Positions 1,309 to 61,990 of a stretch of 64,000 bases of DNA are shown here, piece after piece; the first letter of the stretch is position 1, and every line of letters begins with the position of its first letter. Both the position numbers and the translations under genes were made by a program. The notes under the pieces were generated by a model. The model was given only the letters and a program-made list of their open reading frames with translations, was not told the DNA's origin and searched no databases. The DNA comes from Candidatus Aminicenantes bacterium (GTDB lineage: Bacteria; Acidobacteriota; Aminicenantia; Aminicenantales; UBA4085), in the NCBI GenBank assembly GCA_026393855.1, contig JAPKZJ010000114.1, positions 1 through 64,000 of the forward strand, in the 5' to 3' direction.

Positions 1309-1338
1309 TTGCCTGCTTCTTGTTCTATGCTATATAAT
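1309..1338 (+). promoter_or_regulatory. promoter reading into structured repeat copy A
   Basis: TTGCCT (1309-1314), 18-nt spacer, TATAAT (1333-1338). An alternative register TATATA (1331-1336) with an extended TGC is also possible. Transcription would begin inside the first bases of the repeat at 1336-1483 and continue to the acyl-CoA ligase. Confidence 0.6.
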
Positions 1339-1483
1339 AAACCCGCTCGATACCCCGGGCTTTAGCCCGCCCTCATCCGCTTCGCGGCTGAGGGCTGCAA
1401 AGCCCGGGGTATTAGCAGGATTAATACTGAGCGGTGCTTATGACCCCGATTTGAAAATCGGGATCTCAGCGCTGCGAACGTAT
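1336..1483 (+). repeat. structured dispersed repeat, copy A (two hairpins)
   Basis: 148 nt, matching 61825-61974 in the same orientation. It has a left flank AATAAACCCGCTCGA, a hairpin with 13-bp arms (1351-1363 with 1399-1411), a spacer containing TACTGAGCGG, a second hairpin (GCGGTGC...GCGCTGC outside, CCCGATT...AATCGGG inside) and the right flank GCGAACGTAT. The 24-nt core at 1370-1393 is the exact reverse complement of the core in copy B (61858-61881). Outer stem pairs that are G-C in copy B are G-U compatible here. Together with the promoter and this element the stretch 1209-1540 holds no gene. Confidence 0.9.
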
Positions 1484-1540
1484 GAATCACGGCCTCCGGC
1501 TTGCTCGGCCGCCGAGGACAATTTTTTGGGAGTATAGTTC

Positions 1541-7656: not shown

Positions 7657-7733
7657 TGGTCGGGACGGGCGGATTCGAACCGCCGACCCCATGCACCCCA
7701 AGCATGTGCGCTACCAGGCTGCGCCACGTCCCG
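7657..7733 (-). tRNA. tRNA-Pro (anticodon GGG)
   Basis: 77 nt including an encoded CCA. Acceptor arm CGGGACG pairs with CGTCCCG, the D arm is GGCGCAGCCTGGTAGCGCA, and the 5-bp anticodon stem CATGC/GCATG closes loop TTGGGGT with GGG at 34-36. The T arm GGCGGTTCGAATCCGCC is canonical. Confidence 0.97.
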
Positions 7734-10831: not shown

Positions 10832-12772
10832 TCAGAAAGCTCTCATCTTAACGCCGAATTCGATGAACCGTCCCCGCCACGGGAAGATCGGCTCGACATA
10901 GAAGTAGTCGTTGAGCAGGTTGGTCGCCTTGACGAAAAGCTGAATCATCTTCCAATCGTAGGCCAAGACGGCGTCCAAATTGAAATAAGAGGGGATATCG
11001 AGGACTTTAGCGGCCTTTGAATCCCACCAGGACGATTGCGATCCAAACATGCCATAGACGCTGAGCCGGAAGCCGACCAGAGGCCGGACCGTCAGGTCGA
11101 AGTTCAGGCTGTGCGGCGAAAGCGCATCCAATGGCCGGTCGTCGACGTCGTTGCGATGATCGAGGTTGGTGTAGTTGAGGGTCGCGTCCAGGGGGCCGAT
11201 CGATTTCTGCAATTGGATTTCGGCGCCCGTGATGTGGGCCTTCCCGACGTTCATGTAGCGGCGGGTTCCGTCGGGGAGGGTATAGGTGTCGATCATGTTC
11301 TTGAATCGGTAAGTGAAGAGAGAGGCCGAGATGAAGACGCCCTTGGTCCAGACGGCTCCCAGCTCGGCATTGGTCCCGGTCTCGCCAAGCAGGTCGGGGT
11401 TGCCGCTCGAGGCCGAATAAAGAGCCCGCATGTTAGGCATGCGCGACTTCATCGAGGCCGAGACATGCAGGTCCAGCGCTTCGTTCGGGCTGAACTTCAG
11501 GCCCAGCATCGGGTTGAGCCGCGAAGTCGCGTCGCCGACGAACTTGTCGATAACGTCCAGGCTGACTCCGCCGACGAGCCGCCATTGGCCGGTTAGCCTG
11601 AGCTCGTCCTCCAGGGCCGCCGAGAATGTCCCTTGGTTGTATTCGACGAAGGGCAGGTTTATATCGTCCTGGGTGCGGGCGATATCCTTTTGGAAGTTCA
11701 AGCTGGCCTTCAGGCGGTTCTTAGCGGTCAAGCCGAAATCGGCCAGGGCGAAGGCTCCGTAAACCGAATTATCGAAGGTGCTTTCGAACTGCCGCATGGA
11801 GAAGGCCTTGTCCTTGTACTGGTCCAGCGTGTTCTGGTAGTTCACGGCGAAGGCCCGGAAGCGCAGCGTCGAGTCGCCCCCCAGGGAGGTGAAGCCGCCG
11901 GCGTTCAAGCCATAGCGGTCCCAGTTCTTGAACCGCCAATAACGGGCCGACTGGACGCCGAGCGCGGCCGGCATGCCGTAATCGGACGTGTAAACGTTGC
12001 CGTTGATCATGAGCTCGGTGGTGTCGGAGGGGGCGTAAAACAGCTTGGCGTTCAGGTTGAAGCGCTGATAGCTCGTATTGGCGTAGGTTACGTCCTCGCC
12101 TGTCGCGGCATCGGGGTAGGCGTAGCCATGCGAGCCTTGGTAGCCGAGGTTGCCGGCGAGCGAGAACTTGCCCAGCCGGAAGCCGCCGTCAAGGCCGCCG
12201 GACCGGGTCCGGTCGGCGCCGAATCCCGCGTTGAGGGTCAGGTACGGATCGCTCCCGGGCCGGCGGGTAATGACGTTGACGATGCCGCCCAGGGTGTTGG
12301 GGCCGTAGAGCACCGAGGAAGGACCTTTCGTGATCTGCAGAGTGTCGATGCCGGCGGCGGCCACGGTCTTGAGATCGAACGAGCCGTAGTAGGGCTCGTA
12401 GCTCGGGACTCCGTCGATGAGCAGGACGATGCGGCGCGAGTCCATGCCCCTCAGCTTGAGGGTGAACTCGCTCTTGTTGCCGACCGTGACATAGACGCCG
12501 GGTGCGTAGCGGATGGCTTCGGCCAGGTCGAGCGGCCGGTTTTGTTCGAGCTTGGTGAAATCGATCCGGGTCACGGTAGAGACCGGCTGGTCGCGGGGCA
12601 TCTGGCCGATGACCTGGATCTCTTCGGTGATCCGGACGGGCTTCTCGGCCTCCTTGGCCTTTTCGGTCTGTTGGGCGAGGGCGGGAAGGCCCGCGGCGAG
12701 GACGAAAGCGAGGCCGAGCACGGCCGCGATCGTCCGGATGGGGGAACGGAACGGAGACAGAGAGTGGATCAT
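10832..12772 (-). CDS. TonB-dependent outer-membrane receptor
   Basis: 646 residues with a signal peptide ending near LPALAQQ. The plug domain (about 45-165) has 'RITEEIQVIGQ' as a candidate TonB box and 'LRGMDSRRIVLLIDGVPSYEPYYGS', 'ITKGPSSVLYGPNTLGGIVNVITRRP'. The barrel follows and ends in aromatic Phe (GVKMRAF), as expected for BAM-assembled proteins. It resembles BtuB/CirA-type receptors and lacks an N-terminal carboxypeptidase-like extension. The ligand is unknown. AAGGAGG lies ahead of the ATG. A palindrome overlaps its promoter. Confidence 0.92.
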   Translation of the reverse strand: MIHSLSPFRSPIRTIAAVLGLAFVLAAGLPALAQQTEKAKEAEKPVRITEEIQVIGQMPRDQPVSTVTRIDFTKLEQNRPLDLAEAIRYAPGVYVTVGNKSEFTLKLRGMDSRRIVLLIDGVPSYEPYYGSFDLKTVAAAGIDTLQITKGPSSVLYGPNTLGGIVNVITRRPGSDPYLTLNAGFGADRTRSGGLDGGFRLGKFSLAGNLGYQGSHGYAYPDAATGEDVTYANTSYQRFNLNAKLFYAPSDTTELMINGNVYTSDYGMPAALGVQSARYWRFKNWDRYGLNAGGFTSLGGDSTLRFRAFAVNYQNTLDQYKDKAFSMRQFESTFDNSVYGAFALADFGLTAKNRLKASLNFQKDIARTQDDINLPFVEYNQGTFSAALEDELRLTGQWRLVGGVSLDVIDKFVGDATSRLNPMLGLKFSPNEALDLHVSASMKSRMPNMRALYSASSGNPDLLGETGTNAELGAVWTKGVFISASLFTYRFKNMIDTYTLPDGTRRYMNVGKAHITGAEIQLQKSIGPLDATLNYTNLDHRNDVDDRPLDALSPHSLNFDLTVRPLVGFRLSVYGMFGSQSSWWDSKAAKVLDIPSYFNLDAVLAYDWKMIQLFVKATNLLNDYFYVEPIFPWRGRFIEFGVKMRAF

Positions 12773-12860
12773 CGATCCTCCTTTTCAAAGATGGAAGGCA
12801 AGGCCGTTTCCCGCCTCACCCATTGGCCGGAGGGCATGGCCGGCGAAGGGCCGACTTTAG

Positions 12861-12896
12861 CCGCTCCGGCTCGGAGCGGTCCGGTAATCTACCAGA
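12861..12896 (-). promoter_or_regulatory. paired inverted repeats at the TonB-receptor promoter
   Basis: One perfect 8-bp repeat (12861-12868 with 12872-12879, 3-nt loop) lies just downstream of the -10. A second 7-bp imperfect repeat centred on the -10 reads TCTGGTAGATTACCGGA on the minus strand. The second overlaps the promoter as an operator would; the first would be a hairpin at the extreme 5' end of the mRNA. Confidence 0.45.
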
Positions 12897-57730: not shown

Positions 57731-58696
57731 ATGATTCGAGAAGCCGAACACCCGAATGCCTTAAAGTTTCTGCCGGCGGCCGCCCTGGCCTTGGCGCTCG
57801 CGGCCGCGCCGGCCTGCGGGCTCCTGAACAATCCAACCCGGGCCGGACAGGGCGGCGACGCCTCGACGAAGCTCGTCCACGGCTTAAACTTGGGCGGCCA
57901 GGCCCACGCCGACGGGCTCTGCCGGCCGCTGGAAAACTGCACGGCCTGCCATGGCGCCGATTTGAAAGGCGGGACGAGCGGACAGCCTTCCTGTTTTTCG
58001 TGCCATGCCGACCTTTGGATTCGGCCCAACTGCGGGCAGGGAACGACTTCCCATACCGTCTCTCTCAAAGGCATCATGCATAAACCGGAGTATTGCCAGC
58101 CGCTGGCGAACTGCACGGCCTGCCATGGCGCCGACCTGCGGGGAGGCCCGGGCGGGATTCCCGGCTGCACCGCTTGCCATGGGGCCCTTTGGACCGCCCC
58201 GAACTGCGGCCAAACCGCCCATACCGTAAACCTGGGCGGGAAGATGCACGCGCTGAACTATTGCAACCCGGAGGCCAACTGCACGGGGTGCCACGGCGCC
58301 GGCTTGCAGGGCGGGCCGAACGGCGCCCCATCTTGCACGTCGTGCCACGGGACGAAATGGACCAACCCGGATTGCGGCAAGAATACCCACACCGTCAACC
58401 TGGGCGGAGTTTTTCACGCCTCCGAATACTGCCGGCCTTATCAGAACTGCGTCTCGTGCCACGGGACGGATCTGCGCGGCGGCGCGAATGGGGCCGCCTC
58501 CTGCTTGAAGTGCCACGATCAGAAAAAATGGATGAACTGCGGCACGACCCAGCACACCGACAGCCAGGAAGGCGTCAAGCACGCCCGAAACAAAAAGAAC
58601 GCCCCCACCGACTGCACGCCCTGCCACGGCTCCGACTTGCGGGGCGGGCCGAACGGGGAGCCATCCTGTTACAAGTGTCACGGCAAGGCATGGTGA
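57731..58696 (+). CDS. decaheme c-type cytochrome built of five diheme modules (lipoprotein)
   Basis: 321 residues. Ten CxxCH heme sites are at C70, C88, C128, C146, C184, C202, C240, C258, C295 and C313, in five modules of about 56 residues. A module reads H-T-V-x-L-x-G-x-x-H, YC-x-P, N-C-T-x-CHG-x-D-L-x-GG, S-C-x-x-CHG, xx-NCG. Two His per module could be distal ligands, and the extra Cys pair (YCxP and NCG) is repeated in modules 1-4 and may form disulfides. N-terminal segment ends APAC, a plausible lipobox, so the protein should be on the outer membrane. First gene of the porin-cytochrome operon. Confidence 0.9.
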   Translation: MIREAEHPNALKFLPAAALALALAAAPACGLLNNPTRAGQGGDASTKLVHGLNLGGQAHADGLCRPLENCTACHGADLKGGTSGQPSCFSCHADLWIRPNCGQGTTSHTVSLKGIMHKPEYCQPLANCTACHGADLRGGPGGIPGCTACHGALWTAPNCGQTAHTVNLGGKMHALNYCNPEANCTGCHGAGLQGGPNGAPSCTSCHGTKWTNPDCGKNTHTVNLGGVFHASEYCRPYQNCVSCHGTDLRGGANGAASCLKCHDQKKWMNCGTTQHTDSQEGVKHARNKKNAPTDCTPCHGSDLRGGPNGEPSCYKCHGKAW

Positions 58697-61768: not shown

Positions 61769-61797
61769 ATCATAGTCGAAAGCCATTTTGACATCAA
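61769..61797 (-). promoter_or_regulatory. promoter of the LOG-family gene
   Basis: TTGATG (61797-61792), 17-nt spacer, TATGAT (61774-61769), 21 nt ahead of the start. It overlaps the divergent promoter at 61788-61816. Confidence 0.6.
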
Positions 61798-61816
61798 TCG
61801 GACGCTGTGGTATTTA
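61788..61816 (+). promoter_or_regulatory. promoter reading into structured repeat copy B and purO
   Basis: TTGACA (61788-61793), 17-nt spacer, TATTTA (61811-61816), ending 8 nt before the repeat at 61825. Confidence 0.65.
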
Positions 61817-61824
61817 ATAGCCCG

Positions 61825-61974
61825 AATAAACCCGCTCGATACCCCGGGCTTTGCAATCCTCAGCCGCGAAGCGGATGAGGGCAGGCGCAAGCCCGGGGTA
61901 TGGATAGGGTTCATACTGAGCGGCGCTAATAACCCCGATTTTATAGAAATCGGGGTTTGGCGCCGCGAACGTAT
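61825..61974 (+). repeat. structured dispersed repeat, copy B (two hairpins)
   Basis: 150 nt, same order and strand as 1336-1483. First hairpin arms are 61840-61852 and 61889-61900; the 24-nt core 61858-61881 is inverted exactly relative to copy A. The second hairpin has an uninterrupted outer stem GCGGCGC/GCGCCGC and inner stem ACCCCGATTT/AAATCGGGGT. It ends GCGAACGTAT, 16 nt before the purO start codon, and occupies essentially the whole leader. Confidence 0.9.
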
Positions 61975-61990
61975 CGAACAAGGAGCCGAA

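What the first reader, a model, noticed from the sequence alone, without database searches (positions are those of the whole stretch)
61825..61974. Structured repeat occupies the 5' leaders of two unrelated operons behind promoters
Copy A lies between a TTGCCT-N18-TATAAT promoter and the acyl-CoA ligase; copy B lies between TTGACA-N17-TATTTA and purO. Both would be transcribed from their first bases. The outer stem of the second hairpin is GCGGCGC/GCGCCGC in B and GCGGTGC/GCGCTGC in A, where the changes keep pairing through G-U. This suggests an RNA structure under selection: a cis-regulatory leader or a small RNA carried as a mobile cassette.
Basis: partly seen in the sequence, partly recalled or inferred. 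Interest (0 to 1): 0.75.

Follow-up and report, generated by a model that had tools for sequence, protein, structure and literature searches.

The report
Hairpin mobile element with target guide
The repeat is not a regulatory RNA leader but a tiny mobile DNA element, present in dozens of copies and shared between bacterial phyla, whose hairpin seems to carry a few letters that base-pair with, and so choose, the site where each copy inserts.

Summary
The repeat and its hairpins are real. The leader reading fails. The own genome holds about 40 copies. Near start codons they lie sense and antisense about equally: 20 vs 18 here, 10 vs 12 in a sister species. Neither window copy exists at the orthologous place in two same-genus genomes, although promoter B is conserved in both and the -10 box of A in one. 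It is a mobile insertion of about 71-178 bases, patchy in Aminicenantes and, one mismatch away in 114 bases, in deltaproteobacterial bins.

Its anatomy resembles a non-autonomous IS200/IS605 element: a hairpin near each end, no inverted repeats, no copy-matched target duplication. Read on the bottom strand it sits just 3' of a TTSAT-like site that pre-existed in the best-aligned empty sites. Three bases at the foot of hairpin 2 covary with the flanking target: TTG with CAA, TTC with GAA, TCG with CGA (49:0 against 1:17, p = 5e-15). A second contact through the linker is suggested.

No transposase could be assigned; one element-rich genome has no detectable Y1 gene. I found no report of this family in the papers searched, which exclude most subscription journals.

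The parts
61825..61974 (+). Copy B of the element (forward orientation; inferred net insert 61826-61972)
   Evidence: absent from orthologous loci in G001 and G002
1336..1483 (+). Copy A of the element (inferred net insert about 1337-1481)
   Evidence: absent in G001 and G002
61829..61911 (+). Hairpin 1 of copy B (lower stem AACCC/GGGTT, upper stem ATACCCCGGGC/GCCCGGGGTAT, with a nested palindrome in the loop); right-end hairpin if the bottom strand is the active one
61912..61919 (+). Linker CATACTGA; ATAC pairs with the 3'-terminal GTAT (ACCC with GGGT in other subfamilies); proposed second contact to the target
   Evidence: helix 3: two pairs changed on both sides in 9 of 36 copies
61920..61966 (+). 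Hairpin 2 of copy B (lower stem GCGGCGC/GCGCCGC, upper stem ACCCCGATTT/AAATCGGGGT); left-end hairpin on the bottom strand
61957..61959 (+). Proposed guide TTG in the 3' internal loop (bottom-strand CAA at the 5' foot of the upper hairpin)
   Evidence: guide/target covariation
61973..61977 (+). Target pentanucleotide ATCGA flanking copy B (bottom strand TCGAT); ATCG present at the empty site of G002
1465..1467 (+). Proposed guide CTC in the loop of copy A (predicts a target beginning GAG)
1482..1486 (+). Target ATGAA flanking copy A; ATGA present at the empty site of G002
61788..61816 (+). Host promoter-like site TTGACA-N17-TATTTA of the purO operon, conserved at the empty sites of G001 and G002
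1309..1338 (+). Host promoter-like site TTGCCT-N18-TATAAT of the acyl-CoA ligase; TGCTATATAAT conserved at the empty site of G002

Best explanation
The repeat is a non-autonomous, single-strand-type mobile DNA element, a MITE that works like IS200/IS605 elements. On the bottom strand it reads: target TT(C/G)AT, cut, ACGTTCG, hairpin 2 with guide CAA (or GAA, CGA) at the 5' foot of its upper stem, linker, hairpin 1, TT(T/G)AT end, cut. A transposase supplied in trans is inferred to excise it as a circle from single-stranded DNA and insert it 3' of a site whose TTS part pairs with the guide and whose last two bases match the linker. No target base is duplicated. Shown: mobility (unoccupied orthologous sites), covarying structure, guide/target covariation, pre-existing target bases at the best-aligned empty sites. 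Inferred: the strand, the single-stranded intermediate, the enzyme class and the linker's role. Copies A and B landed just downstream of host promoters; any effect on those genes is secondary.
For: About 40 copies in the own genome. The DNA and covariance surveys of 119 relatives plus the own genome each ring in about ten genomes; sister G001 has none, but is only 76% complete. G018 has 81 matches, G022 39, G016 34. Deltaproteobacterial bins have up to 26, the closest one mismatch in 114 bases from an Aminicenantes copy (L078, L097). For 15 own-genome loci whose flanks were located in G001 or G002 (several by one flank only), no element was found in the sister stretch. With the model 'left flank + A | AT + right flank', the G002 site reads A|ATCG for copy B, A|ATGA for A, A|ATC for C37, and ATG for C26:17024. 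Guide/target: fourth loop base G with target C 49, with G 0; C with C 1, with G 17; Fisher p 5e-15; also significant within G000, G002 and other genomes separately. Over three positions 185 of 243 matches against 151 on permutation, none of 20000 as high. TTCGA loops give CGA in 3 of 3. The 5' end is constant while the 3' flank varies by copy, so this is not an ordinary target duplication. Helix 3: linker ATAC/GTAT in one subfamily, ACCC/GGGT in another. IS608 precedent: target kept in the left flank and recognised by a guide 5' of the hairpin; changing the guide retargets (PMC5934647; PMC8266576).
Against: No transposase is linked. Y1 genes occur in 93 of 119 relatives whether or not they carry elements, and G022 (96% complete, 39 matches) has none detected. 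In G018 the guide CTTA sits beside CAA in 13 of 15 copies, where its third base predicts TAA, and the permutation test there is not significant. Many G022 and G016 copies lack the loop and still sit beside CAA-like sites. Sister genomes are only about 70-85% identical, so empty-site junctions can be off by a few bases, and some loci (C35, C92, C90) show no clear AT in the sister. The guide rule was found by inspecting the same copies it was tested on, apart from part of the other-genome set.
Confidence: 0.68

Rival explanations
1. A cis-regulatory leader or small RNA carried upstream of operons, acting as RNA.
For: Both window copies lie between promoter-like sites and genes; strong folding and covariation.
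Against: Equal sense and antisense placement, absence from orthologous leaders, no G.U excess on the sense strand, no Rfam match at gathering score.
Confidence: 0.05
2. The mobile element is mobilised by host RAYT (TnpA-REP) proteins, as a REP-like sequence of new architecture.
For: Y1 genes of RAYT length are present in G000 and G002. In G002 an element lies just upstream of two of three of them. Guide-like cleavage-site selection is known for one REP system (PMC8266576).
Against: None of the three Y1 loci of G000 has an element, nor did the motif scan show one at the others checked; G022 has no Y1 gene detected; the consensus lacks a GTAG or CGTC tag. The two G002 cases may be chance insertions.
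Confidence: 0.25
3. The three flanking bases belong to the element, and the covariation with the loop is ordinary base pairing inside the folded element.
For: Subfamilies have fixed first bases (C or G), and the flank is most conserved in the deltaproteobacterial copies.
Against: The bases vary from copy to copy with no matching change at the 5' end, and the best-aligned sister sites already carry AT plus the same next base.
Confidence: 0.15
4. A conventional DDE-transposase MITE with short target duplications (for example ATCAA).
For: Deltaproteobacterial copies begin ATCAACCC and are followed by ATCAA.
Against: In G000 and G018 the two ends do not match copy by copy (ATAAA with ATCAA, ATGAA or ATCGA; GTCAA with GTGAA or GTTAA); no terminal inverted repeats were seen by eye.
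Confidence: 0.06

Closest known systems
IS200/IS605 family ends (IS608, ISDra2) and their non-autonomous derivatives
   Same: Subterminal hairpins, no inverted repeats, insertion 3' of a short target kept in the flank, guide at the 5' foot of the left hairpin pairing with the target; the inferred target TTSAT resembles the TTGAT of ISDra2 given in PMC5934647.
   Different: No tnpA or tnpB; short form about 110 nt in all; the guide lies in an internal loop between two stems; the linker appears to contribute; several natural guide/target pairs within one family; cognate enzyme unknown.
REP/BIME sequences and REPINs mobilised by RAYT (TnpA-REP)
   Same: Short, mostly intergenic, palindromic, many copies, possible guide role of a hairpin-foot motif.
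   Different: No GTAG or CGTC tag, two unlike hairpins in fixed order instead of inverted REP pairs, present in a genome without any detected Y1 gene.
PATEs (palindrome-associated elements of haloarchaea and others)
   Same: From general knowledge: non-autonomous palindromic elements related to IS605 ends.
   Different: Not compared by sequence here; different hosts.

Membership tests
IS200/IS605-type non-autonomous element | Hairpin near each end under structural constraint | tested here: met
IS200/IS605-type non-autonomous element | Insertion next to a specific short target that is kept and not duplicated | tested here: met
   clearest empty sites A, B, C37, C26:17024; other loci ambiguous
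IS200/IS605-type non-autonomous element | Guide at the hairpin foot complementary to the target | tested here: met
   for the GTAT-type subfamilies; not for G018 or for the loop-less G022/G016 variants
IS200/IS605-type non-autonomous element | Cognate Y1 (HUH) transposase in the genome | tested here: inconclusive
   Y1 genes in most relatives, none in element-rich G022
IS200/IS605-type non-autonomous element | Single-stranded circular intermediate, lagging-strand bias | not testable with these tools
   needs experiments and complete replicons
REP sequences of RAYT systems | GTAG or CGTC tag at the palindrome foot | tested here: not met
   consensus against the definition in PMC3733652
REP sequences of RAYT systems | REPs flanking the RAYT gene | tested here: inconclusive
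   2 of 3 in G002, 0 of 3 in G000
Cis-regulatory RNA leader | Consistent sense orientation upstream of genes and conservation at orthologous loci | tested here: not met
Known Rfam RNA | Match at gathering score | tested here: not met
   one search finds only a Moco riboswitch and a tRNA in the window

The most novel reading that the evidence does not exclude
A cross-phylum family of about 110-nt elements whose target is read by two separate contacts, an internal loop and the linker between hairpins, with several natural guide/target pairs, mobilised by an enzyme other than the known Y1 transposases.
Probability: 0.2. Interest if true: 0.8.

Novelty: new variant of a known kind. Interest (0 to 1): 0.6.

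Why it matters
Retargeting of IS608 by changing its guide was shown in the laboratory. Here the same logic seems to have run in nature: subfamilies with different guide letters sit beside correspondingly different targets, readable across many independent insertions. If right, it gives a sequence-only test of guide/target recognition, a very small DNA element that carries its own target choice, and a marker of DNA exchange between uncultured Aminicenantes and deltaproteobacteria. The missing enzyme is a concrete open question.

Tried and rejected
Leader or riboswitch reading (orientation, empty sites, Rfam). Conventional target duplication (ends do not match copy by copy). Autonomous version or element ends around Y1 genes: nothing beyond the two upstream copies in G002. 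One exact pattern in viral contigs: no match; plasmid and phage collections: no match. Solo half-copies C113 and C70:41350 looked decayed, with no transposase nearby. One paper search was malformed. An attempt to read the active strand from G.T against A.C mismatches gave no asymmetry.

Full report
Observation. A covariance model built from 25 copies finds about 40 in the own genome and, with stricter filters and E <= 1e-5, matches in ten genomes when the own genome and 119 relatives are searched. Copies come as forms of about 71, 110, 147 and 178 nt, because hairpin 1 carries nested palindromes in its loop; the core is inverted in A relative to B. On 36 diverse copies the structure pairs in 95.8% of cells, with changes on both sides in 16 of 29 pairs; that alignment was fitted to the model, but slid controls fall to 22-50%.

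Not a leader. Flanking genes were called with my own ORF scorer. In the own genome 20 copies lie sense and 18 antisense within 200 nt of a start codon; in G002 10 and 12. The orthologous loci of A and B in G001 and G002 lack the element. For B the promoter-like site is conserved in both sisters, for A the extended -10 region in one. The element therefore inserted into existing leaders.

Mobile, and spread between phyla. Fifteen own-genome loci located in the sister genomes showed no element (covariance search of the sister stretches without a match), though several were matched on one flank only or had poorly aligned junctions. Copies occur in bins labelled Aminicenantes, Acidobacteriota, Syntrophaceae, Thermodesulfobacteriota, Deltaproteobacteria and Planctomycetes, with up to 26 in one deltaproteobacterial genome. 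One deltaproteobacterial and one Aminicenantes copy differ at 1 of 114 positions. These are metagenome bins, so misbinning of single contigs is possible; the repeated copies and AT-rich flanks argue against it as a general explanation.

Target. Flank logos show almost no signal on the left and about three informative bases on the right. With ancestors modelled as left flank + A | AT + right flank, G002 reads A|ATCG at B, A|ATGA at A, A|ATC at C37 and ATG at C26:17024; at C35, C92 and C90 the junction is unclear or lacks AT. The 5' end is constant within a subfamily while the 3' flank varies, so the pair is not a target duplication. Read on the bottom strand this is insertion 3' of TTSAT, the polarity described for IS608 (PMC5934647).

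Guide. Loop bases between the two stems of hairpin 2 covary with the flank: TTTG with CAA, TTTC with GAA, TTCG(A) with CGA. For copies with G or C at the fourth loop base and C or G as first target base the table is 49:0 and 1:17, p 5e-15, and the association holds within G000, G002 and the rest separately; at the second position p is 0.0035. Because each copy is a separate insertion into host DNA, shared ancestry of copies does not by itself produce this, unless the flank is part of the element; the empty sites argue that it is not. Exceptions are G018 (CTTA beside CAA) and the loop-less variants of G022 and G016.

Second contact. Linker ATAC pairs with terminal GTAT in most copies, ACCC with GGGT in G018-type copies, with the target changing from ATCAA to GTCAA. 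This is one subfamily-level contrast and therefore suggestive only.

Enzyme. Y1 genes are common with and without elements. Two of three in G002 have an element upstream, none in G000. G022 has 39 matches and no detected Y1 gene. The enzyme is unknown.

Known work. The paper searches found guide-based target choice in IS608 and in one REP system, but nothing on this family. The library excludes preprints and most subscription papers.

Noticed in passing
1362-1392 and 61851-61885 (window); L307, L310, L312: Hairpin 1 carries nested palindromic inserts in its loop, in both orientations among copies; deltaproteobacterial copies L307, L310 and L312 carry a different REP-like palindrome inside hairpin 2, so elements appear to nest inside each other.
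   Followed up: partly
G000 C92:18639, C71:80983, C90:73848, C135:5177; C35 and C94: Several insertions fall exactly at stop codons: the target side supplies part of a TGA, and the AATAA end supplies a TAA to the upstream gene.
   Followed up: partly
L159 (2133-2245) and L160 (1770-1918): In sister genome G002 an element lies directly upstream of two of three RAYT-like genes, in opposite relative orientations.
   Followed up: partly
12764-12888 (-): Molybdenum/tungsten cofactor riboswitch match (63 bits) at the start of a 646-aa ORF on the minus strand; a tRNA lies at 7660-7733 (-).
   Followed up: no
57920-58656: Five repeats spaced about 168 nt whose coding frame appears to carry CxxCH motifs, suggesting a multi-haem cytochrome-like gene.
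   Followed up: no
5' loop TTCG and 3' CGAA of the element: The two ends of the element can pair with each other (TTCGAC/GTCGAA in deltaproteobacterial copies) in the predicted DNA fold; nearly invariant, so covariation cannot test it.
   Followed up: no
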